Shown: positions 8,308 through 64,000 of the stretch, piece after piece
Position numbering within the stretch: position 1 is the stretch's first letter
How the letters are laid out: every line of letters starts with the position of its first letter
Source: a virus
Length of the DNA: 64,000 nt
Reading direction: 5' to 3' (one strand)
IMG/VR virus record: IMGVR_UViG_3300044613_003659
Coordinates: 43,597 to 107,596 of that record
Made by a program: the position numbers and the translations under genes
The notes under the pieces: generated by a model
Database searches by the model: none
What the model saw: the letters and a program-made list of their open reading frames with translations, nothing else
What the model was told of the DNA's origin: nothing

Positions 8308-9714
8308 TTAAAAGTTCAATTGGCTTCTAAACATAATTGCTTGGTCGCCATTTACACGGCTACCTGAACTACCAACTAATTGATCAAACTTGGTGTCAAC
8401 ATAATTGACGGTGAATCGTAGATTGTCAGTGGCAAACCAAGTTAGGCCGTATGTGATTGCTGTAGCACGGTTAGTTTTGCCAGCAACCACTGTGATCGGG
8501 CTAGCATCAAACTCACTGGCTCGTATACCCACTTGCCAAGCACCGCGTCCACCTTTGTCTACAGGATTAGCGGGTTTAACTGAACTAAACACCCCATCCC
8601 GATAGTTATAGCTTTCACCGGTTAAATTGTACACAGCTTGAACATAATAACCTTTAATTTCTTGATCTGAACCTGTAGCAGGATCGTATCGAAAGTTAAA
8701 TTGTTCTGCTTGTACCTTGAATGCATTGTAAGCAAATGCAGCTTCTAAGCCTTGACGAGTTCTATTAGTTACGCCACTCAGAGCAGGTCCAGTGAAGAAT
8801 GTATTAGCTGAACGCGATTCTGTTCTGCCACTGGATGGAGTAACACCGCCTTTGATTTCACCTGTACTGTATGCAGCTCCCAAATGTGCAACGTAAGTTT
8901 TTACACCTTGTATGTCGGCAATATTGGTAGTAACACGACCAATATAGTCAAAGCCATCACTTACAGCATCCTTGTTGGCACGACCTCGGCTGGCTGCTAG
9001 AGCATATGTAAAACCAGGTTTTGGTACACCATGTAACATGAAGCCAGTTTCCTTACCAGGAATGAACTCGCCTTCGACCTGGCCGATCAAACTACGCTCC
9101 ATAAAGTCTATGTTATTAGAACTAGTTAATTGTTCCAAGCTGAATGGCATTTTGAATAAACCAAATTGAAACTGAGCTTCTGGATTAGCAGCGTAGTTTA
9201 CCCAGGCCACATCCATGGTAGTAGTCGAACTTGATGCTCCAACATCGTTGCCTAAGTTGCCTACAATCTCATATTTGAAATCTTTTTGAAATTGACCACG
9301 TACACCAAACCTAGCTCTACGTACTTCTGCTAGGTTCTGGTACGAATCCGTGGTTTGACCTGCACCATAAGCGGGTGAGTACTGACGATAGTCCATGTGT
9401 AATCGACCTGTAAGTTGGATGGTACTGTTTCCATCCTTGCTTTTGAGTCCGATTCCATTTTCAGCGACCGATCCATCGTTTGCTCTGGCTTGTCTGTATT
9501 TGACTGATTCACTGACATCTTTGTCGATTCTTTGTTCGGCAAACTTTTTGTTTTCCGCTTTTTCTTCGTATGCTTTGACTTTAACATCATATTCTGTTTG
9601 TGTCAATACGCCTTTGTCTCTCAAGATGTTAAGTGTTTCTAAATACTCGTCTGCATATGCAGGTACACTGAATACCAAACTGATAGCCAATGCAATTTTT
9701 GTAAATGCTTTCAT
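8308..9714 (-). CDS. OprP/OprO-like phosphate-selective porin
   Basis: 468 residues: a signal peptide ending at VPAYA-D, a short coiled N-terminal segment (residues 25-65), then an alternating beta-barrel sequence with LTGRLHMDYRQY near residue 102 and a C-terminal aromatic residue (QLNF), the outer-membrane insertion signal. The overall plan is that of phosphate-selective porins O/P. It starts 9 nt after pstS and shares its PhoB-type promoter, so the pair would widen phosphate uptake across the outer membrane and periplasm during infection. Anion selectivity cannot be read from the sequence. Confidence 0.9.
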   Translation of the reverse strand: MKAFTKIALAISLVFSVPAYADEYLETLNILRDKGVLTQTEYDVKVKAYEEKAENKKFAEQRIDKDVSESVKYRQARANDGSVAENGIGLKSKDGNSTIQLTGRLHMDYRQYSPAYGAGQTTDSYQNLAEVRRARFGVRGQFQKDFKYEIVGNLGNDVGASSSTTTMDVAWVNYAANPEAQFQFGLFKMPFSLEQLTSSNNIDFMERSLIGQVEGEFIPGKETGFMLHGVPKPGFTYALAASRGRANKDAVSDGFDYIGRVTTNIADIQGVKTYVAHLGAAYSTGEIKGGVTPSSGRTESRSANTFFTGPALSGVTNRTRQGLEAAFAYNAFKVQAEQFNFRYDPATGSDQEIKGYYVQAVYNLTGESYNYRDGVFSSVKPANPVDKGGRGAWQVGIRASEFDASPITVVAGKTNRATAITYGLTWFATDNLRFTVNYVDTKFDQLVGSSGSRVNGDQAIMFRSQLNF

Positions 9715-9723
9715 TTCGGTTCC

Positions 9724-10749
9724 TTATTTCCAAATTGGGTTACCATCAGGACCACGGAAATCTCGCTTCCAGTTTTCCTGAACTAGTTTAATTACATCGG
9801 CTGGCATGTGAACATACTCTAACTCTGTTGACATCTGGCCACCGTTCTTGTAGCTCCAATCAAAGAACTTGAGAACTGCACGACCTGTCAGTGCATCTGC
9901 TTGCTGCTTGTGCATGAGAATAAAACTTGCACCTGTAGCTGGCCAAGCATCCTTACCTGTTTGCCATGTCAGTAATAAATACATACCTGGTGCATTCGCC
10001 CAATCAGCATTAGCGGCTGCTGCTTTGAATGTAGTGTCGTCGGGTAATACAAAGTTACCATCACGATTCTTTAGTGCTGCGTATGGAATCTTATTGCGTT
10101 TTGCATATGCATATTCAACATAACCAAATGCACCTTTCAGTCTTTGTACTTGTGCTGCAACACCTTCATTACCTTTACCACCTACACCAACTGGCCACTT
10201 GACTGCTGTACCTTCGCCGACTGTCTTTTGAAAGTCTGCGTTGGCTTTACCCAAAAAGTTTGTCCAGATAAATGTGGTGCCTGAACCATCAGCACGATGA
10301 ACTACAGTGATGTTCATTGCAGGCAAGTTTACACCAGGATTCAAATCAGTAATTGCTTTGTCATTCCATTTGGTAATTTTACCAAGATGAATGTTTGCAA
10401 TTACATCAGGTGTCAACTTTAGTTTACCTGCATCAACACCATCAAGATTGTAAACTGGTACAACACCACCAATGATTGCTGGAAACTGTACTAGACCTTC
10501 TTTGTCTAGTTCTTCTTTTTTGAGTGGCATATCACTTGCACCAAAGTCAACTGTCTTGGCTTTGATTTGACGAATACCGCCACCTGAACCAATTGACTGA
10601 TAATTTAAACCAATGCCAGTTTGTGCTTTGTAGGCTTCTGCCCATTTAGCGTAGATAGGAAAAGGAAATGTTGCTCCTGCTCCAGTGAATTCTGCGGCTG
10701 TTGCAGTAACAGCTAGGGTAGCAAATACAATTGCCAAAAGTTTTTTCAT
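9724..10749 (-). CDS. pstS: Phosphate ABC transporter substrate-binding protein PstS
   Basis: 341 residues with a Sec signal peptide (MKKLLAIVFATLAVTATAA) and mature protein starting with FTGAGATFPFPIYAKW, the PstS hallmark. SIGSGGGIRQ, DFGASDMPL and HRADGSGTTFIW are the conserved phosphate-contact loops. Length is normal for the family. The start is the ATG after GGAG rather than an upstream in-frame ATG, because only this one gives a signal peptide. The protein would hand phosphate to the host PstCAB transporter. First gene of the phosphate operon. Confidence 0.96.
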   Translation of the reverse strand: MKKLLAIVFATLAVTATAAEFTGAGATFPFPIYAKWAEAYKAQTGIGLNYQSIGSGGGIRQIKAKTVDFGASDMPLKKEELDKEGLVQFPAIIGGVVPVYNLDGVDAGKLKLTPDVIANIHLGKITKWNDKAITDLNPGVNLPAMNITVVHRADGSGTTFIWTNFLGKANADFQKTVGEGTAVKWPVGVGGKGNEGVAAQVQRLKGAFGYVEYAYAKRNKIPYAALKNRDGNFVLPDDTTFKAAAANADWANAPGMYLLLTWQTGKDAWPATGASFILMHKQQADALTGRAVLKFFDWSYKNGGQMSTELEYVHMPADVIKLVQENWKRDFRGPDGNPIWK

Positions 10750-10783
10750 TCTGTAATCTCCATTTAATGTGCGATGCACAATA

Positions 10784-10819
10784 ATATTTAAACACACTAA
10801 GATTACAATTCCGTTACAA
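10784..10819 (-). promoter_or_regulatory. PhoB-type box and -10 element upstream of pstS
   Basis: Two 7-nt direct repeats, TTGTAAC and TTGTAAT, separated by 4 nt (10802-10819) match the PhoB box layout. They are followed 11 nt later by TAAATAT (10784-10790), the spacing seen at PhoB-activated promoters that lack a normal -35. Host PhoB would thus switch on the operon under phosphate starvation. Confidence 0.7.
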
Positions 10820-12399: not shown

Positions 12400-12423
12400 A
12401 CGATTTTTCCTATTATACAGTTA

Positions 12424-12431
12424 TATTTATA
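12424..12431 (-). promoter_or_regulatory. T4-type late promoter motif
   Basis: Exact TATAAATA, 25 nt upstream of the gene at 12037-12399 and overlapping the T-run of the tmRNA terminator. Confidence 0.55.
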
Positions 12432-12455
12432 AAAATAGGCACCTAAGTGCCTATT
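12432..12455 (-). terminator. Terminator of the tmRNA
   Basis: AATAGGCAC-TTAG-GTGCCTATT stem followed by TTTAT. Confidence 0.85.
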
Positions 12456-12776
<321 letters not shown>

Positions 12777-12911
12777 TTACTTACGTAAAAACCAAATCAT
12801 ATCTAAATATTTTTGAAGATGTTTTTCTTGAACGGATTTAGCCCAACTTGGTTGTGGTAAATTCCACCCAATAAATGCACCTACCATAATCCAAAAAATT
12901 GTTTCTAACAT
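12777..12911 (-). CDS. Small membrane protein (44 aa)
   Basis: AAAGGAG precedes the ATG at 12911. One N-terminal membrane helix (residues 3-18, ETIFWIMVGAFIGWNL), then a basic/amphipathic tail ending MIWFLRK. The stop abuts the tmRNA acceptor piece. First of three consecutive micro-membrane proteins. Function unknown. Confidence 0.75.
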   Translation of the reverse strand: MLETIFWIMVGAFIGWNLPQPSWAKSVQEKHLQKYLDMIWFLRK

Positions 12912-15968: not shown

Positions 15969-16097
15969 TCATTTACTAAGTTCTACTGCTTGAGTTTTGG
16001 TAACATTTACAGCCTTATCCAGCATACGAGCAATACCCGCAAAGCCAATGGTAGCTACCACAATGCCAAAAATGGTTCCGTAAATAAAAGTCTTCAT
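15969..16097 (-). CDS. Small membrane protein (42 aa)
   Basis: MKTFIYG followed by hydrophobic TIFGIVVATIGFAGIA, then an amphipathic KAVNVTKTQAVELSK tail. Start overlaps the upstream stop as TAATG. One transmembrane helix; role unknown. Confidence 0.75.
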   Translation of the reverse strand: MKTFIYGTIFGIVVATIGFAGIARMLDKAVNVTKTQAVELSK

Positions 16098-31616: not shown

Positions 31617-31660
31617 TTTGTATTTATTGGCAATTACATTTAAGAAGTTTTTGTCAAAAA

Positions 31661-31680
31661 AAATGCCCCGAAGGGCATTT
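31661..31680. terminator. Bidirectional terminator between lipoprotein and leader-tagged operons
   Basis: AAATGCCC-CGAA-GGGCATTT stem with A- and T-runs on both sides. Confidence 0.9.
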
Positions 31681-31692
31681 TTTTTGTTGCAG

Positions 31693-32259
31693 TTATCGTC
31701 GGTTATTTGCATCAATTTCGCTAAATGCTCGATCGGACTTGGCCTTTGTATCAGCAGTTACACGGCGTCTATCATTGCGTATTGCCAGCTGATTGGCTTC
31801 ACCCATTGGTAGTGCTACTAGGGCATATGAACGATATCGATTACCTTCAGCAATACGTTTGATTTCTACAATTTCTGCGCCTGAAATATCAGTACCGCGG
31901 CACATTGCACGTATAGCCATTTCGCTACGCTCTACACTGACATCGTCAACGTCGCTCATAAACATCTTGCTTTGTTTATCAACTTCGCCGCCAGCTGCCA
32001 TACAGATTTTGCTAAATGCAATGAGTTTGGCTTTTTCGTCAGCCATGCTAAAATCTCGGCTCACTCCTGTGCCATTTGCATAAACTGCGTCCTTGCTTTC
32101 AGGAAGCTCAGTCATCCATTTAGGCGCTTTATCGATAGTACGCTCGACATATTTTTCTTGTCGTTTACTTTCGTATTCAGCACGTTTTTCAAATCGCTCA
32201 GTAGTACCGCAAGCAGTAACGAGAGCAGCTATTGGAACCAACATAAAAAGTTTATTCAT
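31693..32259 (-). CDS. LPP20-like lipoprotein (188 aa)
   Basis: Signal sequence with lipobox TACG (Cys at about residue 17). Mature part: KAPKWMTELPESKDAVYANGTGVSRDFSMADEKAKLIAFSKIC, the typical LPP20 opening where a trans-acting module follows a D-x-A-x-x-K-A helix. A C-terminal ALVALPMGEANQLA strand completes the domain. Start chosen at the second ATG, 5 nt from AAGGTG. Likely outer-membrane anchored. Last gene of the operon. Confidence 0.8.
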   Translation of the reverse strand: MNKLFMLVPIAALVTACGTTERFEKRAEYESKRQEKYVERTIDKAPKWMTELPESKDAVYANGTGVSRDFSMADEKAKLIAFSKICMAAGGEVDKQSKMFMSDVDDVSVERSEMAIRAMCRGTDISGAEIVEIKRIAEGNRYRSYALVALPMGEANQLAIRNDRRRVTADTKAKSDRAFSEIDANNRR

Positions 32260-32268
32260 CATTACACC

Positions 32269-32391
32269 TTATCTAGATTTAATCCACTCGCCAGCACGTT
32301 GTAAATCGTTACCGGCTCCACTTACTGCACCGCCTACTGTGCCACAGCCAGTAAGGGCTACTACAAACAAAAAAGTAATAAAAGTTTTCAT
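32269..32391 (-). CDS. Entericidin-like lipopeptide (40 aa)
   Basis: Short signal sequence, lipobox LTGC, then GTVGGAVSGAGNDLQRAGEWIKSR. Entericidins A/B are small lipoproteins with the same GC-N/GT-x-x-G-x-G-x-D-I-x-x-x-G plan; entericidin B promotes bacterial lysis. The gene is 40 codons and sits inside the lipoprotein operon. Lysis or membrane-stress role is inference. Confidence 0.75.
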   Translation of the reverse strand: MKTFITFLFVVALTGCGTVGGAVSGAGNDLQRAGEWIKSR

Positions 32392-32411
32392 AATCTATTG
32401 TAAATTAAAGA

Positions 32412-32987
32412 TTAAAATTTGTCAACCACAGTCCACTCATTTCTAATTACACAACCAACAATCTGCCATTGCATCAAATTATTGGTACGTGGATCTATGT
32501 CTGATTCTAAAAAATATCTGCATGTGGATCCTTTGTATTCAAAAGGATCTGAATTTGGCACGGGTTTAAGTTCACTAATTTTAAAGGTATCAAATTTTTT
32601 GAGTCCTTTCTTGAGTTGCGGAATTTCAAAATCATTACAATAAAGGGTCTGACTGGATTGTACTGAACTACCTGCCACTCGTTCAAGTATTTTGGTACGA
32701 CCTGCTTGCAAAGCCTGCGCACACACTTGATCAGTACTGTCTGTGATCGGACCTTGGCTTTCGCCTCGTGCATCGTGCCAACGGTTGTTTATACGAGCTT
32801 TAAAAACAACTGTGCATATTTGTTGATTGCCCGCAGTTTTAACAAATTTTTGAAAATCTGTAACTTCTTTGATTTCAGTATTTGTCTTGTTAGCGGTAAC
32901 TGACTCTTGATAGCAATCAGCCATGGCTACTGCGGGCAACAGACAAACTACTGTTGCGGTTTTTTGAAAGAATCTTCTAGTAAACAT
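32412..32987 (-). CDS. Exported protein (191 aa)
   Basis: N-terminal MFTRRFFQKTATVVCLLPAVAMA is a signal peptide; the RRFF pair could be Tat-like but lacks the full motif. Mature part has five to six Cys, suggesting disulfides in the periplasm, and a VCAQALQAGRTKILERVAGSSVQSSQ helix similar to the LPP20-type helix of 31693. Overlaps the next lipoprotein gene by 40 nt. Confidence 0.75.
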   Translation of the reverse strand: MFTRRFFQKTATVVCLLPAVAMADCYQESVTANKTNTEIKEVTDFQKFVKTAGNQQICTVVFKARINNRWHDARGESQGPITDSTDQVCAQALQAGRTKILERVAGSSVQSSQTLYCNDFEIPQLKKGLKKFDTFKISELKPVPNSDPFEYKGSTCRYFLESDIDPRTNNLMQWQIVGCVIRNEWTVVDKF

Positions 32988-33289
32988 CTTTGCCTCAGTT
33001 GTCTCTGTTGCGCCTTGATCATAGCTTCGTGTTCGCCGTCCATGCCGGCTGAACTATCCGCTGCTGTACCGTTCCAGACATTAGAAACTATGCCCAAAAT
33101 TGAAGTCATCTGTCCAGCAAGTATAAATCTTTGATTGTCACTGTACCTTTGACTTTCCAAAAATTGATACTGTTCATTGCGTTGATCACAGTTAATTTTG
33201 TAGTTAGACAAATCATTAGCACTCATTCTCACGGGTGTTGTACAGGCTGTTTGTGCTACAGCAGCGAGAATAATCAAGTAGTTTTTCAT
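32948..33289 (-). CDS. Lipoprotein (113 aa)
   Basis: MKNYLIILAAVAQTAC gives signal peptide plus lipobox QTAC. Mature part is helical and Gln/Arg-rich (DQRNEQYQFLESQRYSDNQRF; EAMIKAQQRQLRQRC). It has two more Cys. Start overlaps the previous stop as ATGA. Confidence 0.8.
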   Translation of the reverse strand: MKNYLIILAAVAQTACTTPVRMSANDLSNYKINCDQRNEQYQFLESQRYSDNQRFILAGQMTSILGIVSNVWNGTAADSSAGMDGEHEAMIKAQQRQLRQRCLLEDSFKKPQQ

Positions 33290-33498
33290 CTACACTCTTT
33301 TTGTAAGTCCCAAAATTTTTGTCTAATTTTACGACGTTCATTGAGATCATCGTTGGACAACTGTGATTCGGCTTGTGCCAAAAGTTGCTCCTGTCTTTGC
33401 TTGTTATAACAATCAGCGAACCAAGCTGTAGTGTCAGGAGCGTGTCTTGTGGCACAGGCACTGAGCAAAACTGAAACCGCGACTATAAATGATTTCAT
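33286..33498 (-). CDS. Small lipoprotein (70 aa)
   Basis: MKSFIVAVSVLLSAC signal and lipobox; mature part is a charged helix (EQLLAQAESQLSNDDLNERRKIRQKF). The Q/R-rich helix resembles that of the 32948 lipoprotein, suggesting duplicated coiled-coil partners. ATGA overlaps on both sides. Confidence 0.8.
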   Translation of the reverse strand: MKSFIVAVSVLLSACATRHAPDTTAWFADCYNKQRQEQLLAQAESQLSNDDLNERRKIRQKFWDLQKECR

Positions 33499-33650
33499 TG
33501 TGCTCGGTTGGGCAGTATAGCAGATTTAAAAATTTGCAATGCGGTATTTTCATCACAACCAGAATTGCGCTGGATATACCGTACAGCATCCTTAGAATTA
33601 AGTTGGAGAACAAAAATTGCTTCGTCTGCAAATCGTTGTGCCTGTGTCAT
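33495..33650 (-). CDS. Small protein (51 aa) leading the lipoprotein operon
   Basis: TQAQRFADEAIFVLQLNSKDAVRYIQRNSGCDENTAL: helical, three-helix HTH-like spacing, no signal peptide. Coupled by ATGA to the next lipoprotein gene. Unknown function. Confidence 0.7.
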   Translation of the reverse strand: MTQAQRFADEAIFVLQLNSKDAVRYIQRNSGCDENTALQIFKSAILPNRAQ

Positions 33651-33660
33651 ACTATTTCCT

Positions 33661-34077
33661 TTACCAAGATGAATTGTAAAAAACTTTGAGACCAGTAAAA
33701 AGTTCTGCGCGAGCCCGGCGTATAAAATCTAAATCTTGAAGCCGATAATAATCATCGCTATCACTACCAAAGAAAAAACCAGAAGTAGATGGGAGCCTAC
33801 CATTTTTAACGTCCTCCTCCAGAGTCTCTAGATCTTCCCAGGTCAGTTCTAGTTCTACACCGTTAAAGTTGCTACCCCACGAACTGTCCGAGTTGTTACC
33901 GCCTTTGTGTAACCACAGTTGTTCCATCCAACCATGTAAATTAGGATGCTTGCGCCAATAGGCTAATTCGATTGTTGGGTCTTGAAAATCTTCATTACCC
34001 TTTTCGTATCGCTGTTCGTAATACTCATTTTTTGCGCCGGCCTTTGCTGCGGCGTAGGCATACATATCTAAACCCAT
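33661..34077 (-). CDS. Conserved phage protein, MGLDMYAY family (138 aa)
   Basis: Start at the ATG after GAGGT; the first in-frame ATG lies upstream of it near the promoter. MGLDMYAYAAAK followed by ELAYWRKHPNLHGWMEQLW is a widespread phage/bacterial protein signature, sometimes annotated as phosphoglycerate-kinase-like without basis. A WEDLETLEEDVKNGRLP helix and a C-terminal SDSDDYYRLQDLDFIRRAR segment follow. Function unknown. Confidence 0.85.
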   Translation of the reverse strand: MGLDMYAYAAAKAGAKNEYYEQRYEKGNEDFQDPTIELAYWRKHPNLHGWMEQLWLHKGGNNSDSSWGSNFNGVELELTWEDLETLEEDVKNGRLPSTSGFFFGSDSDDYYRLQDLDFIRRARAELFTGLKVFYNSSW

Positions 34078-34105: not shown

Positions 34106-34135
34106 ATTATAATCAAAATCTACAATTTTAGTCAA
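34106..34135 (-). promoter_or_regulatory. Sigma70 promoter
   Basis: TTGACT (34130-34135), TATAAT (34106-34111), 18-nt spacer. Confidence 0.8.
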
Positions 34136-34446: not shown

Positions 34447-34487
34447 ATACTAACACATAAAAAAAGCCCTGTCAAGCAGGGCTTTTT
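34447..34487 (-). promoter_or_regulatory. Overlapping terminator and promoter
   Basis: AAAAAGCCCTG-CTTGA-CAGGGCTTTTT (34461-34487) ends the gene at 34514. Its loop and 3' arm contain TTGACA (34470-34475), with TAGTAT (34447-34452) 17 nt on, a promoter for the gene at 34128. Confidence 0.7.
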
Positions 34488-37670: not shown

Positions 37671-37934
37671 TCATGCAAATCTTAATGCGAATTCGGTGGC
37701 AATGCGTTCATTTTTAAATATATAAACTGTAACACTTTCTTCAAGTGGCGCCTGATCGGCCATTGGATACTGCACATAGTAGAGCCAATCATCACCGTTT
37801 AACCAATGGCGAATTTCTCCTTCTCGACCACCGTATCGAATTGATCCTGTACCAGCATGAGTTTGCAACCATTCATTCACTTGATCGGTTTGCTTTTCCA
37901 TTTTTGGATATGGTATTCTTATTTCGCTTGGCAT
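37671..37934 (-). CDS. Member of the tandem DAxxFxLxW family (87 aa)
   Basis: C-terminal YIFKNERIATEFALRFA is the family tail in a diverged form (ATEFALRF). N-terminal part has IPYPKMEKQTDQVNEWLQTHAG and DDWLYYVQYPMAD. The start overlaps the previous gene by 16 nt. Unknown function. Confidence 0.7.
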   Translation of the reverse strand: MPSEIRIPYPKMEKQTDQVNEWLQTHAGTGSIRYGGREGEIRHWLNGDDWLYYVQYPMADQAPLEESVTVYIFKNERIATEFALRFA

Positions 37935-38227
37935 GTGTATTTTAGTGCAAATTCTACTATTTTTCTATGTGGAACTGTTTGGTGAAATCTAACAATTTTC
38001 CTTTGTTGATTTCCTTGAATTTCAAGATACCATTTGTCAGTAAAGCCACGAAATCTAGCAAACTGACTGATTGAACTAAAATGGTATGGTTTTGGTTTGC
38101 CAAAGTATTCACCCGCGGTGTGTCGATCTCTAACTTCTTCTATGTTGTTTACAAGCCAATCTATCATTTGCTTGTAATCGCCATCAACTATTTCAAATTC
38201 AATTGACCAATCTACAACATCAATCAT
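37919..38227 (-). CDS. Tandem family member, diverged (102 aa)
   Basis: VDWSIEFEIVDGDYKQMIDWLVNNIEEVRD, FKGFTDKWYLEIQGNQQRKIVRFHQ and KIVEFALKYTCQAK; the end resembles EFALKY of relatives. Beta-rich; starts 4 nt after the previous stop. Confidence 0.65.
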   Translation of the reverse strand: MIDVVDWSIEFEIVDGDYKQMIDWLVNNIEEVRDRHTAGEYFGKPKPYHFSSISQFARFRGFTDKWYLEIQGNQQRKIVRFHQTVPHRKIVEFALKYTCQAK

Positions 38228-38230
38228 TGA

Positions 38231-38428
38231 TCAACTACTCCATTTTAATAAAAAAAGTGTAGCATCTTCTTGATTCTTAAAGGCAAAATACAAGCCATTT
38301 GAACGCCAAGTATTGCGTTCAAATGTATCAATACAATATGCTTCCAATCTACAAGCCTGTTCCCAAGCATCCGGTTCAGGAGTCATACGAAATTGATGAG
38401 GCCAATGCCGTCTGTTATAAACTTGCAT
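38231..38428 (-). CDS. Tandem family member (65 aa)
   Basis: Tail YFAFKNQEDATLFLLKW is the clean family motif. The rest is WPHQFRMTPEPDAWEQACRLEAYCID. Coupled to the previous gene by TAATG. Confidence 0.75.
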   Translation of the reverse strand: MQVYNRRHWPHQFRMTPEPDAWEQACRLEAYCIDTFERNTWRSNGLYFAFKNQEDATLFLLKWSS

Positions 38429-38796
38429 TAAAGATAATCATCTTGGTAAGGAACTACAATCCAACCCAATTGTTTAAGATCCATTTGAACTTCATCTGTG
38501 ATATGAGATTCGTGAACAAACCCTTGTTTAAGGTGGCCTTCATCTCCAACAAATCCCATACCCGAACAGTACCAATCCATGTAGTCGCCTTGACAGCGAA
38601 TATCCGCTACCAATCCGCCGGCATAACGCCAGGTACAACTCCATGTCTGATCTGTCAACACAGGTATTACTTCTAGTTTTTGAAAAGAATTATTACATAA
38701 TGCAGCATACACATTTTGAGCGTAGCTTTCACTATCTCGCACTTTATCTACAAACCACTTGGTATCTTTCATATCACGTTCTAAACTAGGTTCCAT
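38428..38796 (-). CDS. Hypothetical protein (122 aa) inside the tandem family
   Basis: Start set at the ATG overlapping the previous stop (TAATG), not at the earlier TTG. SLERDMKDTKWFVDKVRDSESYAQNVYAALCNN is helical; WSCTWRYAGGLVADIRCQGDYMDWY is beta. Lacks the DAxxFxLxW tail. Widespread type in aquatic phages; function unknown. Confidence 0.75.
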   Translation of the reverse strand: MEPSLERDMKDTKWFVDKVRDSESYAQNVYAALCNNSFQKLEVIPVLTDQTWSCTWRYAGGLVADIRCQGDYMDWYCSGMGFVGDEGHLKQGFVHESHITDEVQMDLKQLGWIVVPYQDDYL

Positions 38797-39014
38797 TATT
38801 GTCCTTGCCAACGTAATTGAAATAACAAAGCATCCTGCTCGTTATAGAATTCAAACTCGTAACGAATGTGCCATTCGGGCTCCTCGCCTAGTACATCGAA
38901 GCTAAAAGCATTGCTATTTTCGTAGATCAACCAACTAACAAAACTAGGGCAATTTTCAACTGCCCATTCTCTTAGCTGATCTTCATCAATATCGTATAAG
39001 GTTACTATTGCCAT
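38796..39014 (-). CDS. Tandem family member (72 aa)
   Basis: Tail EFYNEQDALLFQLRWQGQ gives the motif exactly. The body is ITLYDIDEDQLREWAVENCPSFVSWLIYE. Overlaps the previous gene by 10 nt. Confidence 0.75.
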   Translation of the reverse strand: MAIVTLYDIDEDQLREWAVENCPSFVSWLIYENSNAFSFDVLGEEPEWHIRYEFEFYNEQDALLFQLRWQGQ

Positions 39015-39241
39015 CTTAATAAAAAATTACTAGCATCTGCTTGGTCTTCTATGACCACAACCATGCCTTGTTGATGATTACGCCCTCTAGGCAAACATTC
39101 GTCCATCCAAGTATATATCTCTTTTTCATTGTTGGTCCACCAACGATAATCACTTATAATGATATAATAGTGTGGCATTTCCTCGTCAAAAGGACCAGTG
39201 GCAATAAATCTACCTTTTTTATCTTCCCACAGTGTTGACAT
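39005..39241 (-). CDS. Tandem family member (78 aa)
   Basis: Tail VVVIEDQADASNFLLRWQ. Body has KGRFIATGPFDEEMPHYYIIISDYRWWTNNEKEIYTW. Overlaps the upstream gene by 23 nt. Weak ribosome site, so translation is probably coupled. Confidence 0.7.
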   Translation of the reverse strand: MSTLWEDKKGRFIATGPFDEEMPHYYIIISDYRWWTNNEKEIYTWMDECLPRGRNHQQGMVVVIEDQADASNFLLRWQ

Positions 39242-39428
39242 TTTTATTTTTTTGTAAACATAAAGATTGGTATTGATCTTGATTGGTTTTAATTGATTCT
39301 ACCCATTTTGCTCTTGCAGCCATACACTCTTCGTGAGTAGGATACTCTTTAGTATACACAAACTTCATTGACGGCGATGGGTCGTTCCAAAATTGTATGC
39401 TTAATAGCCAAACAGTGATCATTTCCAT
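39219..39428 (-). CDS. Small protein (69 aa), relative of 2091
   Basis: MEMITVWLLSIQFWNDPSP start is hydrophobic, then FVYTKEYPTHEECMAARAKWV and IKTNQDQYQSLCLQKN. Same plan as the 58-aa protein at 2091. GGGGATAAT ribosome site; lies within the tandem family without the tail motif. Confidence 0.7.
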   Translation of the reverse strand: MEMITVWLLSIQFWNDPSPSMKFVYTKEYPTHEECMAARAKWVESIKTNQDQYQSLCLQKNKNVNTVGR

Positions 39429-39429
39429 A

Positions 39430-39651
39430 TTATCCCCATTTAAGTAAAAACATAGTTACTTCTTCTTCGTTGCGAAATTTAAAGGTATCAAACGATGTTC
39501 TGCGTCCGCACCTATTGTACATACACCATTCTTGTATTGGCTCAAGATTACTTTCTCTCAATCCAGTTTGAGTTATTGGTCCGTGATCATATGCAATTCT
39601 GGCAATTAAAATTAAAGGATATGCTGCATCTCTTTCCCACACAATTTTCAT
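39430..39651 (-). CDS. Tandem family member (73 aa)
   Basis: Tail FKFRNEEEVTMFLLKWG. Body KIVWERDAAYPLILIARIAYDH. Coupled by ATGA. Confidence 0.75.
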   Translation of the reverse strand: MKIVWERDAAYPLILIARIAYDHGPITQTGLRESNLEPIQEWCMYNRCGRRTSFDTFKFRNEEEVTMFLLKWG

Positions 39652-44904: not shown

Positions 44905-46125
44905 ATGATCTCCTACAATCGATTTTATGAGTTATTTCACGAAGTTTTTTGTTACCCTAATCATTTAACATCATATGGATTTATACCAAGCTATTCTACT
45001 AAAATTGAAAATTTTGTTCCTTTTAATTTTGGCAATAAGTTTGATTTAAATTTTGATATAAACGGTCAATTATTTTGGTGGTGCGAAGAACCTATTAATT
45101 ATGAAGATTTTGAAAATCTGCATTATTATCCATTAGGTACAGATGTAGTACCATTTGACTTTAGTAAAGGGACTGATAGTATGATTCCGCCTATAAGTTG
45201 TATGGAAGCCGATGTTCATATTTCAATTGTCGCCAATTCAGAAAAAAGTAAAATGAAAAATAATCTGTTAAAAAAATACAATTATAAAGATTGGTATTTT
45301 TTCTTTCACGGGTTTGCTGCACTTGACTGGTTTCGTGATTTTAAATATATGCAAAAAAGTGATATCAAAATAACAAAATTATTTATCTGTTTAAATCACA
45401 TATTGGATAAAAAAAGAAATTATAGGTTGAATTTACTTAATCAATTATTTCACCATAATTTAGATAAGGTAGGAAATATATCTGCTCCTAAATTAACCAC
45501 AAATCTAATAAAAGATGAAATTTTTGATCCGTATTCATTGTTAAGTGTTCAAACTAAAAAAGATATATATAAAAATCTTTATTCTAAAGCGCAACCAATT
45601 ATTTTGGATAACAAAAATAGTTTTAAAACAGTAAGTGCAGACATTATAGAAAATACGTTTGCATTAAGTTCTTTGTGGCATATTGTTCCAGAAACTATTT
45701 TTTATGATGAAAAGTTACATTTAACGGAGAAAATTTTTAAGCCAATAGTAATTAAAAGACCTTTTATTTTAATTGGCGCACCCGGTAATCTAGCATATCT
45801 CAAAGAATACGGTTTTCAAACGTTTGATCGCTGGATCAATGAAGATTACGATAACGAACCAGATCCTGATTTAAGAATTCAAAAAGCGATTGGGGAACTA
45901 AAGAAACTACAAAATAAAAATTTGACTGAGATGTATAATGAAATGTTACCTGTGCTTGAATTTAATCATGCTCATTTTTTTGGAAAATTTAGAGAAATAA
46001 TAGTAGATGAAGCTATAGAAAATTTTAAAAAAGCTATGTTTATGTATAACAAAGATTTATCTTTTAGATTCCGATTGCCTGAAGTTTTAGACTTTGACTT
46101 AATAAGAAGACATTTATTATTTTAA
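44905..46125 (+). CDS. Exostosin/GT-like glycosyltransferase
   Basis: 406 residues; C-terminal half has LTEKIFKPIVIKRPFILIGAPGNLAYLKEYGFQTFDRWINEDYD, the motif shared with the gene at 35279. N-terminal half is Asn/Lys rich and unfamiliar (YWFFHGFAALDWFRD, LNHILDKKRNYRL). Likely transfers a sugar in the same pathway as the dehydrogenase. Start codons of this and the dehydrogenase are divergent with 1 nt between. Confidence 0.75.
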   Translation: MISYNRFYELFHEVFCYPNHLTSYGFIPSYSTKIENFVPFNFGNKFDLNFDINGQLFWWCEEPINYEDFENLHYYPLGTDVVPFDFSKGTDSMIPPISCMEADVHISIVANSEKSKMKNNLLKKYNYKDWYFFFHGFAALDWFRDFKYMQKSDIKITKLFICLNHILDKKRNYRLNLLNQLFHHNLDKVGNISAPKLTTNLIKDEIFDPYSLLSVQTKKDIYKNLYSKAQPIILDNKNSFKTVSADIIENTFALSSLWHIVPETIFYDEKLHLTEKIFKPIVIKRPFILIGAPGNLAYLKEYGFQTFDRWINEDYDNEPDPDLRIQKAIGELKKLQNKNLTEMYNEMLPVLEFNHAHFFGKFREIIVDEAIENFKKAMFMYNKDLSFRFRLPEVLDFDLIRRHLLF

Positions 46126-46874
46126 ATTTTTCTTTCTATTGCACTAACAATCAACTGCTCCATATCATGTATCCTTGTTCTTGTTGTCTTTGAATTTAAT
46201 ACAACAAATAATTTTTTTTGATTGTTTATATAAAGACTCATTACTAAACAGCCTCCGGAAGCTCTTACGTAACCTGTTTTACTGACCAAAACGTCATATT
46301 TGCCTACCAGTGGATTGGTATTAGAGTATTTCCATTTTAATATTTTTTTCTTTTTGGATTTAATAATTTCTCCAACTAATTTATTACTAGCAGATACAAT
46401 TACAGGATATTTTTCCGCTGCCAACAATAATTTTATCAAATCTGTAGGGGTACTAACATTGCGATTATCTAAACCACTGCTGTCAAAAAATGATGTACGA
46501 GTCATTCCTAGTACATCTGCTTTGTGATTCATATCTTCAATACACTGCCGGTAACCTCTATGATAATTTTCGCATAACATTTTAGCAGCAACATTATCAG
46601 ATTTGATAATAGCCAAATTTAAAAGCTGTTCTCTAGTTATATATAATCCTTTAAATTTCTTTTTTAAAGGTGTATTTAGATTTTCATTAGCATCTAATAC
46701 TACCATAGCAGTCATTAGTTTTGTTATACTTGCTATTGGCTGTACTATTTCTATGTTTTCTGATTCTAAAACTTTTCCTTCTCCATCTGCAATCAGCCAA
46801 GATTTAGCTTGTATCTGAGCTGCATAGGAATAGTTTACCAAAGAGAATAAAACTACTGCGACAATATTTTTCAT
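46122..46874 (-). CDS. D-alanyl-D-alanine endopeptidase, PBP7-like (peptidase S11)
   Basis: 250 residues with signal sequence ending at SYAA. Active-site blocks: SITK (Ser49, Lys52), SDN (92-94) and KTG (199-201) in family order. Such enzymes cut peptidoglycan cross-links in the periplasm. In a phage this could help wall remodelling, lysis or protect against superinfection. Slightly shorter than bacterial PbpG. Sits convergent with the glycosyltransferase (4-nt overlap). Confidence 0.9.
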   Translation of the reverse strand: MKNIVAVVLFSLVNYSYAAQIQAKSWLIADGEGKVLESENIEIVQPIASITKLMTAMVVLDANENLNTPLKKKFKGLYITREQLLNLAIIKSDNVAAKMLCENYHRGYRQCIEDMNHKADVLGMTRTSFFDSSGLDNRNVSTPTDLIKLLLAAEKYPVIVSASNKLVGEIIKSKKKKILKWKYSNTNPLVGKYDVLVSKTGYVRASGGCLVMSLYINNQKKLFVVLNSKTTRTRIHDMEQLIVSAIERKI

Positions 46875-51022: not shown

Positions 51023-51460
51023 TTACTTAGCAAAAGTAATAGCAATCTTCTTGGCTTTTTGTTCTTCTGGAACAATATGTTCTAAACTTACAGCCAAAAT
51101 ACCATTAACAACTGTAGCACCTTTTACTTCGACATTATCTGCTAGAGTAAAATGGCGAGTGAAATTACGAGCACTTATACCCCGATGGAGATATTCATAT
51201 TCGTCTTTTTGTTTTTGTTCGCCTTTAATCGTTAATACATTTTCTTTGTATTCAATATCCAGTTCTTCTTGCGTAAACCCTGCTACCGCAAGTTGAATAG
51301 CATAATGATTTTCGTCAATACGAACAATGTTATGCGGAGGATAGTTTTCGGCCTTACTGTTTGCAAAAGTTCGACCCAGTTCATTAAAGAGTTTATCAAA
51401 TCCTACAGCATGACGATGTAGAGTAGGTAAATCAAAAGTACTAATTGTATATGTTGTCAT
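51023..51460 (-). CDS. Small heat-shock protein Hsp20/IbpA
   Basis: 145 residues from MTTYTISTFD after AAAGGAG; the longer frame is rejected. Alpha-crystallin core spans about residues 35-125 (YAIQLAVAGFTQEELDIEYKENVLTIKGEQ; FTRHFTLADNVEVKGATVVNGILAVSLE). The C-terminal KIAIT carries the I-x-I anchor. Prevents aggregation of unfolded proteins and works with DnaK and GroEL, which follow. Confidence 0.92.
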   Translation of the reverse strand: MTTYTISTFDLPTLHRHAVGFDKLFNELGRTFANSKAENYPPHNIVRIDENHYAIQLAVAGFTQEELDIEYKENVLTIKGEQKQKDEYEYLHRGISARNFTRHFTLADNVEVKGATVVNGILAVSLEHIVPEEQKAKKIAITFAK

Positions 51461-51503
51461 AATATTTTCTCCTTTCATTAAGCAAGTTATGACATATATG
51501 AAG

Positions 51504-51526
51504 GTAGACCCCGATGGCATCTACCC
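51504..51526 (-). promoter_or_regulatory. 5'-UTR hairpin element, hsp20 copy
   Basis: GGTAGA / TCTACC stem enclosing TGCCATCGGGG; about 45 nt before the hsp20 start. Followed by TAACTTGCTT and AAAGGAG. Same element as at dnaK and groES. Confidence 0.6.
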
Positions 51527-51536
51527 TGCATATTCT

Positions 51537-53420
51537 TTACTTCTTTTCTGTGAATTCAGCATCAACTACATTATCGTTTGATTCCGCGTTTACAGATTCT
51601 TCTGTTGTTTTTTGCTTTACTTCTTGTATTACACTTGAAGCTACAAACAGTTCACTTAACTTAGAAGTAATAGCTTCTTGATCTGTTCCGGCAACTACTT
51701 TTTCCAGTTCTGCAATGGTATCATTGATTTTATTAGTTTGATCCTCCGATAGCTTGCCTTCTACTTCTTTAAGATCAGTGCGGACCTGATGGATAACTGA
51801 ATCTGCTTGATTACGTGTTTCAATTAATTCACGCTGCTTTTTGTCTGCATCTGCGTTAGTTTCAGCATCGCGAATCATTTCCTCAATCTGTTCTTTACTT
51901 AAACCACTATCACTTTTAATTGTAATCTTGTTTTCTTTGCCAGTCTTTTTGTCTTTTGCACTTACCTTGAGAATACCGTTAGCGTCTACATCTAGCGTAA
52001 CTTCAATTTGTGGCATACCTCTTGGTGCAGGATCAATGCCTTCTAGATTAAATTCGCCTAACAATTTATTATGTTGAACTAGTTCACGCTCGCCTTGATA
52101 GACTTTGATTGTTACAGCTGGTTGATTATCTTCGGCTGTAGAGAACACCTGACTGTTCTTAGTAGGAATAGTTGTATTTTTTTGAATCAGTTTTGTCATT
52201 ACTCCGCCCATGGTTTCAATACCTAGGCTTAGTGGAGTGACATCAAGTAGTAGCACGTCTTTACGTTCGCCACCAAGTACAGCACCTTGTACTGCTGCGC
52301 CTACAGCCACAGCTTCATCAGGATTGACATCTCGACGAGGTGCCCGGCCAAACAATTGTTCAACTGCTTCTTGAACTTTTGGCATGCGTGTCTGTCCGCC
52401 AACTAGAATAACTTCATCAATATCTGCAGCAGTCACACCAGCATCACGCATGGCAACTCGGCACGGTTCTATTGAGCGTTGAATCAAATCTTCTACTAGG
52501 CTTTCAAATTTTGCACGAGTAATTTTTAGATTTAAATGTTTTGGGCCTGTGGCATCGGCTGTAATATAAGGCAAATTAACATCTGTTTGGGTGCTATTGG
52601 AAAGTTCTATTTTTGTTTTTTCAGCTGCTTCTTTTAGTCGCTGTAGTGCCATAACATCTTTGGCTAGATCTACACCGCTTTCTTTCTTGAATTCGGTAAT
52701 TAAGTAATCCATCAGTCTTTGATCAAAATCTTCGCCACCTAAAAAGGTATCGCCGTTGGTGCTAAGTACTTCGAATTGTTTATCACCATCCACATTAGCG
52801 ATGTCAATAATAGAAATATCAAAGGTACCACCACCAAGATCATAAACAGCAATTTTACGATCCGTCTTTTCATTTTTATCTACTCCATAAGCCAAAGCCG
52901 CTGCGGTCGGCTCATTGATAATGCGCAGAACTTCTAAGCCTGCGATAGCACCTGCGTCTTTGGTAGCTTGGCGCTGACTATCGTTAAAATATGCAGGTAC
53001 AGTGATTACTGCTCGTGTAACTTCGTGTCCTAGATAATCCTCAGCAGTTTTTTTCATTTTACGTAAGACTTCTGCCGAGATTTGTGGAGGCGCCAATTCT
53101 TTATCGTTAGCTTTTACCCATGCGTCGCCATTTTTACTTTCAAAAATGGTATAAGGCATGAGGTCAATATCTTTTTGAACTGCTTGTTCTTGGAATTTAC
53201 GACCAATTAGTCGTTTACTAGCATAGATAGTGTTTTTGGGATTAGTTACAGCCTGGCGTTTGGCACTAGCTCCAACTAGAATTTCGTCTGAGGTGTATGC
53301 GACAATAGAAGGAGTTGTTCTTGCACCTTCTGAATTTTCAATAACTTTTGGGGTTCCGTTTTCTACAATTGCAACACAACTGTTAGTTGTGCCAAGATCA
53401 ATACCAATAATTGTGCTCAT
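51537..53420 (-). CDS. dnaK: Chaperone DnaK (Hsp70)
   Basis: 627 residues, full length. ATPase domain starts [17 protein letters not shown] and holds [11 protein letters not shown] and the phosphate loops; the substrate domain and C-terminal lid follow, ending in DAEFTEKK. Binds exposed hydrophobic segments in an ATP cycle with host DnaJ and GrpE, which are not in this window. TATAAATA (53479-53486) and a 5'-UTR hairpin precede it. Length typical of bacterial DnaK (638 in E. coli). Confidence 0.97.
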
Positions 53421-53448
53421 TAATTGTTCTCCTTAAGTAAGCAAGCGA

Positions 53449-53486
53449 GTGTAGGACCCCTAAGGCGCCCTACACTTGTATTTATA
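53449..53486 (-). promoter_or_regulatory. Late promoter motif and 5'-UTR hairpin of dnaK
   Basis: TATAAATA at 53479-53486, then stem GTGTAGG / CCTACAC (53449-53475) around GCGCCTTAGGGGT. Hairpin would start 3 nt after the promoter motif, so it is at or near the transcript 5' end. Leader continues CTTGCTTACTTAAGGAG. Confidence 0.65.
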
Positions 53487-53512
53487 CTACAAAATGCCTA
53501 AATAATCAACGA

Positions 53513-55150
<1,638 letters not shown>

Positions 55151-55157
55151 TTAAAAA

Positions 55158-55445
55158 TTATTCAACAATTGCCAACACATCATCTTCTTTCATGACGATA
55201 TGTTCTTGGTTATCTAGTTTAACACCAGTACCTGCGTACTTTCCGTACAGAACAGTATCTCCGGCTTTAACAACTAATGGCACAACAGTACCATTGTCCA
55301 AAAGTCGGCCAGTACCAGCTGCCACCACAAAACCACGACTGGGTTTTTCTTGAGCATTGTCTGGGATTACGATTCCTGATTTTGTTCTTGTATCTTCTTC
55401 GATTGGACGGACCAAAATACGGTCGCGGATTGGATTTAGCTTCAT
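55158..55445 (-). CDS. groES: Co-chaperonin GroES
   Basis: 95 residues from MKLNPIRDRILVRPIEE after AAAGGAG; the longer frame includes the leader hairpin and is rejected. SGIVIPDNAQEKPSRGFVVAAG is the mobile loop region. VVKAGDTVLYGKYAGTGVKLD matches the family core. Caps GroEL. Heads the groES-groEL operon. Confidence 0.96.
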   Translation of the reverse strand: MKLNPIRDRILVRPIEEDTRTKSGIVIPDNAQEKPSRGFVVAAGTGRLLDNGTVVPLVVKAGDTVLYGKYAGTGVKLDNQEHIVMKEDDVLAIVE

Positions 55446-55477
55446 AGTTTCTCCTTTAAAAAGCAAGTTAAATAAAA

Positions 55478-55510
55478 ATGGACCCATTACGGCGTCCATG
55501 TTTATTTATA
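55478..55510 (-). promoter_or_regulatory. Late promoter motif and 5'-UTR hairpin of groES
   Basis: TATAAATA at 55503-55510, then stem ATGGAC / GTCCAT (55478-55499) enclosing GCCGTAATGG. Leader continues TAACTTGCTT then AAAGGAG. Same element as hsp20 and dnaK. Confidence 0.65.
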
Positions 55511-63886: not shown

Positions 63887-64000
63887 TTACTTAAACAGGA
63901 TTAGAGCCATTAAACTTGCTTGTATAACGAATCCTAGACCAATAGTAGAAATATTGAGTAAATCTTTTAGAATAATAGCTCGACCAAACAACAGCACTAA
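63887..64000 (-). CDS. Membrane protein, C-terminal part
   Basis: Runs off the right edge; 37 codons visible. AIILKDLLNISTIGLGFVIQASLMALILFK is two hydrophobic segments with a short loop. Possibly another three-helix small membrane protein like 63366. Confidence 0.6.
   Translation of the reverse strand, partial: LVLLFGRAIILKDLLNISTIGLGFVIQASLMALILFK

What the first reader, a model, noticed from the sequence alone, without database searches (positions are those of the whole stretch)
31693..33650. Operon of five lipo- or exported proteins
Three lipobox proteins (31693, 32948, 33286), an entericidin-like peptide (32269) and a Cys-rich exported protein (32412) follow in overlap. Such a set in a phage suggests envelope remodelling: surface exclusion, lysis control or outer-membrane stress. 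The helix VCAQALQAGRTK in 32412 resembles LPP20.
Basis: partly seen in the sequence, partly recalled or inferred. Interest (0 to 1): 0.55.

Follow-up and report, generated by a model that had tools for sequence, protein, structure and literature searches.

The report
Phage outer-membrane lipoprotein gene cassette
Many uncultivated phages share the same small cluster of genes for proteins sent to the bacterial outer envelope, with strong bacterial-type promoters, so it probably reworks or guards the infected cell's surface, though no experiment has tested this yet.

Summary
The five ORFs are real and belong to a conserved cassette. Among 84 non-redundant viral loci chosen because they hold the 189-aa gene, 82 hold at least one further cassette gene. 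The order is P70 family (one or two copies) > exported six-Cys protein (P191) > small TM protein (TM42) > 40-aa entericidin-like lipoprotein (P40) > 189-aa LPP20-like lipoprotein (P189); only TM42 ever departs from it. P40 accompanies P189 in 74 of 84 loci, P191 in 74. Median dN/dS is 0.09-0.23. The LPP20 resemblance sits in the 31693 gene, not 32412, and is weak. A sigma-70-type site (10 or more of 12) lies within 120 nt upstream of TM42/P40 in 64 of 73 loci against 4% of shuffles; 27 are perfect. I read this as early expression and favour an outer-membrane-anchored module that guards the envelope or excludes other phages (0.37) over a lysis module (0.24). Lysis stays open: in 7 of 84 loci an endolysin and a holin-like gene stand directly upstream. 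Absence of the T4 late motif proved uninformative (0 of 73, 0.65 expected). Window proteins score below Pfam cut-offs; there are no functional data.

The parts
31693..32262 (-). P189: LPP20-like lipoprotein (189 aa)
32269..32391 (-). P40: entericidin-like lipoprotein (40 aa)
32412..32987 (-). P191: exported protein, six invariant Cys; C domain like the 17 kDa surface antigen in some relatives
32948..33289 (-). P113: second P70-family gene; lipobox QTAC irregular
33286..33498 (-). P70: small lipoprotein; lipid Cys plus two Cys invariant in 31 chosen members
33495..33650 (-). P51: 51-aa ORF without signal; with the cassette in few loci
33661..34077 (-). P139: first gene of the apparent unit (138 aa from the ATG at 34077; an upstream TTG at 34116 is also open), no signal; weak phrog_7971 match; with the cassette in few loci
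34106..34135 (-). sigma-70-type site TTGACT-18-TATAAT (11 of 12), 28 nt before the ATG at 34077
32397..32425 (-). sigma-70-type site TTGACA-17-TACAAT (11 of 12), overlapping the 3' end of P191 and only 5 nt before the P40 ATG, so a transcript from it would have no or almost no leader
31656..31685. terminator-like hairpin (A8-TGCCC-CGAA-GGGCA-T8), 7 nt past the P189 stop; read by eye, not listed by the scan
34461..34487 (-). terminator-like hairpin upstream of the unit
15969..16097 (-). TM42 homologue (42 aa, one TM); just before P40 in 45 of 84 loci, here about 16 kb away
63887..64000 (-). C-terminal piece of the holin-like protein family, cut by the end of the record, about 31.5 kb from P40

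Best explanation
A phage cassette for an outer-membrane-anchored protein set made early in infection. Host RNA polymerase reads it from sigma-70 promoters; the lipoproteins (P70 family, P40, P189) are lipidated and mostly sorted to the outer membrane, P191 is exported and its cysteines oxidised in the periplasm, TM42 sits in the inner membrane; together they change or guard the infected cell's envelope, most likely keeping further phages out or keeping the envelope sound during infection. Shown: conserved gene order, signals and lipoboxes, invariant cysteines, purifying selection, enrichment of sigma-70-type sites. Inferred: the membrane each protein sits in, that they act together, early timing, and the guarding or exclusion phenotype.
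For: Gene order and co-occurrence in 84 loci. Promoter sites within 120 nt of TM42/P40: 64 of 73 loci with 10 or more of 12 matches, 51 with 11 or more, 27 perfect, against 4.2%, 0.3% and 0% of 1460 shuffles and 5.7%, 3.4% and 1.4% of 1460 random windows of the same loci; at the cassette head 34 of 73 with 10 or more against 3.3% of shuffles. G or S after the lipid Cys. dN/dS medians 0.09-0.23. In Melnitz P189 lies 3.8 kb before the tmRNA and 4.5 kb before the late-transcription coactivator gene. The T5 paper (passages) says many phages make exclusion proteins early and describes the lipoprotein Llp acting on an outer-membrane receptor.
Against: No experiment, receptor or target. Sigma-70-type sites do not prove timing, and the Melnitz authors place an endolysin under an early promoter too (passage). 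The T4 late motif TATAAATA is absent from 73 cassette heads and 73 TM42/P40 upstream regions, but only 0.65 and 1.3 would be expected by chance, so this says nothing; its strand bias in the window (9 against 1) was equalled on one strand by the highest of 30 shuffles. In the window the P40 site leaves room for no normal leader. No convincing match to Llp or Cor: phrog_1119 E 0.016, residues 1-24 of the 70-aa protein. No sign of an arms race in dN/dS. Endolysin neighbours in 8 of 84 loci.
Confidence: 0.37

Rival explanations
1. Lysis module: the lipoproteins do or time the outer-membrane step of lysis, in place of known spanins.
For: In 7 of 84 loci (L009, L037, L149, L151, L153, L154, L162) the order is SleB-type endolysin > holin-like protein with three hydrophobic segments > P40 > P189; three SleB proteins scanned (L149, L037, L002) match phrog_938 endolysin and two (L037, L002) PF07486. 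In Melnitz a SleB gene overlaps the end of P189 by 1 nt, and the homologue of the holin-like protein stands one gene after a GH108 gene. Some of 31 P70-family members hit Rz-like spanin PHROGs weakly (phrog_812 in 5, phrog_6073 in 3 with best E 0.0013, phrog_3198 and phrog_456 in 2 each). Entericidin B is known as bacteriolytic (recalled).
Against: No SleB within 2.5 kb in 76 of 84 loci (77 of 84 have that much sequence upstream, 71 downstream). Sigma-70 sites suggest early expression. In the window proteins no second TM and no C-terminal TM. In this phage the holin-like piece lies about 31.5 kb away.
Confidence: 0.24
2. Envelope upkeep: phage versions of ordinary bacterial lipoproteins that keep the outer membrane and periplasm working during infection, with no role in exclusion or lysis.
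For: The three recognisable likenesses (LPP20, 17 kDa antigen, entericidin) are bacterial envelope families (recalled). A bacterial MAG contig holds a relative of P40 of L009 (63% identity) between host-type genes. The record also encodes a D-Ala-D-Ala carboxypeptidase-like protein, a phosphate-binding-type protein, a fatty acid desaturase and chaperones.
Against: One bacterial locus was found for P40 and none for P189 (limited pattern scans), so the set is not plainly a copy of a host operon.
Confidence: 0.25
3. Assembly helper: the set assists particle maturation at the membrane, given the protease gene behind it.
For: A ClpP-like gene follows within 2.5 kb in 53 of 84 loci and an SPFH/Band 7 lipoprotein in 7; representatives match PF00574 and phrog_94 head maturation protease, and PF01145 and phrog_200.
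Against: Exported lipoproteins have no evident part in head assembly; the ClpP profile finds nothing in this window.
Confidence: 0.05

Closest known systems
LPP20 family (PF02169; HP1454, PDB 4kzs)
   Same: 10 of 48 P189 relatives at E<=0.1, best 8e-4; 4kzs is the top PDB profile hit at E 0.31 and first VIA-align row (Z 6.7, rmsd 2.2, 58 residues)
   Different: window protein has no LPP20 hit at E<=1; Asp_decarbox scores alike in relatives; dodecin and BP26 rows tie in Z, and Z under 8 may mean only a common arrangement
Entericidin EcnA/B (PF08085)
   Same: 40-aa lipoprotein matching 13 of the 20 model positions in the window protein; 10 of 15 chosen relatives; only hit in the record
   Different: all scores under the 23.3-bit cut-off (best 21.6); one gene, not an A/B pair; sits before P189
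17 kDa outer membrane surface antigen (PF16998)
   Same: 7 of 30 P191 relatives, best 3.2e-5; HTVC008M has a gene annotated as surface antigen five genes before its P189
   Different: window P191 itself has no hit; an extra N domain in most relatives (by eye)
T5 Llp / T1 Cor superinfection-exclusion lipoproteins
   Same: small phage lipoproteins of the outer membrane (passages)
   Different: single genes there, a set of genes here; only weak matches at the signal end
Two-component and unimolecular spanins
   Same: small lipoproteins; the T4 o-spanin has two conserved Cys (passages); weak Rz-like PHROG hits in the P70 family
   Different: no i-spanin-like partner and no C-terminal TM in the window proteins
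Curli pore genes CsgG/CsgF of pelagimyophages and Melnitz
   Same: outer-membrane genes carried by phages that also carry P189, with a proposed lysis role (passages)
   Different: no CsgG or CsgF match in this record, a fragment

Membership tests
LPP20 (PF02169) | score above the Pfam cut-off (25.9 bits) | tested here: not met
   window protein: no LPP20 match at E<=1; relatives 10 of 48 at E<=0.1, best 8e-4, scores not shown
LPP20 (PF02169) | LPP20 fold | tested here: inconclusive
   model pLDDT 76.8, pTM 0.61; 4kzs Foldseek E 0.12, third row; VIA Z 6.7, tied with dodecins
Entericidin (PF08085) | score above the Pfam cut-off (23.3 bits) | tested here: not met
   window 15.8 bits; best E among 15 relatives is that of L009, 21.6 bits
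Entericidin (PF08085) | short lipoprotein with lipobox | tested here: met
   40 aa, LTGC; lipobox pattern in 66 of 66 relatives, redundant loci included
Entericidin (PF08085) | bacteriolytic or antidote activity | not testable with these tools
   needs expression
17 kDa surface antigen (PF16998) | match of the C domain | tested here: inconclusive
   7 of 30 relatives at E<=0.1, best 3.2e-5; window protein none at E<=1
Two-component spanin | inner-membrane i-spanin with long periplasmic part beside the o-spanin | tested here: not met
   hydropathy of seven window proteins shows no second TM; TM42 has a tail of about 20 aa and lies 16 kb away here; spanins elsewhere in the genome not sought
Two-component spanin | sequence match to known spanins | tested here: inconclusive
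   P70-family members: Rz-like PHROGs, best E 0.0013; window proteins none at E<=1
Unimolecular spanin | lipobox plus C-terminal TM | tested here: not met
   highest 19-residue mean beyond the signal is 1.13, mid-P113
Cor/Llp exclusion lipoprotein | sequence match | tested here: inconclusive
   phrog_1119 E 0.016 for residues 1-24 of the 70-aa protein; 6 of 31 P70-family members at E<=0.1, best 0.0055
Cor/Llp exclusion lipoprotein | blocks superinfection | not testable with these tools
   needs an assay
Curli pore CsgG/CsgF | PF03783 and PF10614 in the genome | tested here: inconclusive
   no match at E<=1, but the record is a 107.6-kb fragment

The most novel reading that the evidence does not exclude
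Phages of several lineages share an undescribed outer-membrane machine: an entericidin-type lipoprotein coupled to a larger lipoprotein (LPP20/dodecin-like P189, or X236 with the exported X354), read by host polymerase as soon as infection starts, which seals or re-programs the outer membrane against further phages. The larger partner can be swapped while the entericidin-like gene stays.
Probability: 0.2. Interest if true: 0.8.

Novelty: new variant of a known kind. Interest (0 to 1): 0.5.

Why it matters
If right, it adds a multi-gene envelope module to the single-gene exclusion lipoproteins and the spanins of model phages, and gives a role to genes listed as hypothetical in Melnitz, HTVC008M and Mosig. 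Melnitz has a cultured host, so timing and phenotype can be tested directly. I found no account of a phage-borne entericidin- or LPP20-like gene in the listings (15 of 22 papers listed; 15 of 30); these are open-access listings, not readings of the papers.

Tried and rejected
Pfam and PHROGs on the five window proteins gave nothing convincing; relatives were needed. P191 had no tblastn match among phage records (with a relative) and no PDB profile hit or clear fold match (generic rows such as RAD52). LPP20 by sequence is no better supported in relatives than Asp_decarbox. A 91% profile match P189-X236 vanished when signal peptides were cut, so no homology is claimed; likewise P189-P191 (36%, at most 1.7% after cutting). 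X236 is a positional counterpart only: of 38 loci with P40 but no P189, P191 or P70, it starts right after P40 in 11 (10 after thinning), 7 hold it elsewhere by the script's rule (three of these, L177-L179, only because their ORF was taken from an earlier start), and 20 hold none. X354 and FlgT: looked alike by eye; one of five scanned X354-type proteins hit LPP20 at E 0.0072, below cut-off, so a lead only. Late promoters: the absence of TATAAATA, which I first took as evidence of early timing, turned out to be expected by chance; I lowered the best explanation from 0.40 to 0.37 and raised lysis from 0.22 to 0.24. Endolysin in this record: no peptidoglycan hydrolase among the 25 of 28 Pfam families shown, except Peptidase_S11; 79 of the 129 ORFs of 60-420 aa listed were scanned, so one may have been missed. 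Host: not assigned; GroEL against phages did not help.

Limits of the counts: the scans started from P189, P191 or P40 (70, 70 and 80 loci), so the starting gene's presence is given, and loci are oriented by it. The 84 loci are those with P189 of at least 150 aa, thinned at 90% likeness of the last 150 residues. Alignments A1, A2, A5 and A6 are chosen members (48, 30, 15, 31), A2 full-length ones only. dN/dS rests on 50 to 1413 non-independent pairs of 60-97% identity.

Full report
What is there. The five ORFs exist on the minus strand as stated, in a 107,596-base virus record of which the window is bases 43597-107596. Two of four junctions overlap (40 and 4 nt), two are gaps of 20 and 6 nt. 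Four carry a lipobox by eye, that of the 113-aa protein (QTAC) irregular; the 191-aa protein has an ordinary signal sequence. A terminator-like hairpin stands 7 nt past the 189-aa gene (31656-31685, read) and another upstream of the unit (34487-34461).

Conservation. Family scans of the five window proteins gave nothing convincing. Scans of viral contigs gave 70 loci for P189, 70 for the P191 family and 80 kept of 88 for P40. Iterated profile searches of the ORFs of these loci found no member of P189, P40, P191 or the P70 family on the opposite strand. Thinned to 84 loci with P189, the order P70 > P191 > TM42 > P40 > P189 is broken only by TM42, which follows P40 in one locus and lies beyond P189 in two, this window being one. 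Counts: P40 74, P191 74, P70 family 62, TM42 48 (45 before P40); 82 of 84 hold at least one cassette gene besides P189. In the collection of phage records, P189 was found in four Melnitz records, two HTVC008M records and Mosig (28-29% identity); those three phages lack a P40 match and have a 38-47-aa hydrophobic gene before P189, which the TM42 profile recognises only in Melnitz and only at E 0.57. Median dN/dS: P191 0.09 (60 pairs), P70 family 0.17 (50), P189 0.17 (685), TM42 0.18 (1413), P40 0.23 (938); no pair above 1.

What each protein is like. P189: 10 of 48 relatives match LPP20 (best 8e-4), but 11 of 48 match Asp_decarbox (best 0.001). The profile's top PDB hit is the LPP20 protein HP1454 at E 0.31. 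The AlphaFold model (pLDDT 76.8) has HP1454 third in Foldseek (E 0.12, none at 0.001 or better) and first in VIA-align (Z 6.7, rmsd 2.2, 58 residues), tied with dodecins. P40: entericidin-like in 10 of 15 chosen relatives, all below cut-off, and the only PF08085 hit of the record. P191: six Cys invariant in 30 chosen relatives, C domain like the 17 kDa surface antigen in 7 of 30, model pLDDT 82.3 with pTM 0.45 and no clear fold match; some relatives keep one domain only (by eye), and in L040 one ORF joins a P70 to a P191 part. P70 family: lipid Cys and two more Cys invariant in 31 chosen members; weak hits to Cor and to Rz-like spanin PHROGs (best 0.0055 and 0.0013).

Expression. In 42 of 66 loci with measurable P191 and P40 a gap of 120-260 nt separates them; the 14 gap sequences printed there hold the TM42 gene, usually behind a promoter-like site. 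Within 120 nt upstream of TM42 or P40, 64 of 73 loci have a sigma-70-type site with 10 or more of 12 matches and 27 a perfect one; 1460 shuffles gave 4.2% and 0%. In the window such sites (11 of 12) stand at 32425-32397 and 34135-34106; the first is only 5 nt from the P40 start, so its use would give a transcript almost without leader. The T4 late motif TATAAATA (recalled) was looked for as a contrast: 9 times on the cassette strand and once on the other in the window, four of the nine within 60 nt before a start codon, but none near the cassette heads or TM42/P40 starts, where only 0.65 and 1.3 were expected anyway, and one strand's shuffles reached 9 at most with a mean of 3. So the case for early expression rests on the sigma-70 sites alone.

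Neighbours. In 7 of 84 loci a SleB-type endolysin and a holin-like gene precede P40 and P189; in Melnitz a SleB gene follows P189. A ClpP-like gene follows within 2.5 kb in 53 of 84 and an SPFH lipoprotein in 7 (71 loci have that much sequence). In 11 of 38 loci with P40 but none of P189, P191, P70, the lipoprotein X236 starts right after P40, and each of these 11 has an X354-type gene next. The window's contig end cuts a holin-like gene about 31.5 kb from P40.

Reading. Sigma-70 promoter sites, outer-membrane signals and tight linkage speak for an envelope module acting during infection; by analogy with Llp (passages) keeping other phages out is the simplest output, though general envelope guarding can hardly be separated from it. 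Lysis is the main rival because of the seven cassettes, Melnitz, and the weak Rz-like hits; the promoters and the lack of spanin anatomy count against it, not decisively, since the Melnitz authors also put an endolysin under an early promoter (passage). Papers PMC9004378, PMC6139136, PMC9586334 and PMC7029224 were seen as passages only; all others as listings. The listings showed no account of this cassette.

Noticed in passing
window 12401-12801: Phage-encoded tmRNA with tag ANAANDEVFALAA; the Melnitz paper reports tmRNA in 402 of 18,146 phage genomes (passage).
   Followed up: no
window 51023-55499 and L077 7648-8070: Chaperone set: GroEL, HSP20, ClpS and two Cpn10 proteins (places by eye), DnaK-like by eye.
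   Followed up: partly
window 37671-39651: Run of small neighbouring genes several of which end in a like motif (roughly F-x-x-x-x-D-A-x-x-F-x-L-x-W), perhaps diverged tandem copies (by eye).
   Followed up: no
window 8308-10797: Phosphate-binding-type protein (PBP family hit, placed by eye) next to another exported protein.
   Followed up: no
window 46122-46874: D-alanyl-D-alanine carboxypeptidase-like protein (phrog_5304 peptidase; Peptidase_S11 hit placed by eye).
   Followed up: partly
L158 6120-7891 and like loci: Lipoprotein X236 and exported X354 right after P40: a possible second version of the module; in L158 a ClpP-like gene follows.
   Followed up: partly
L226 4001-4123: Gene 63% identical to P40 of L009 in an Oxalobacteraceae MAG contig among host-type genes.
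   Followed up: partly
L149 5614-5919, L002 5159-5422: Hydrophobic protein family next to SleB (L149) or near a GH108 gene (L002), a likely holin family; no PHROGs match at E<=0.1 for these two.
   Followed up: partly
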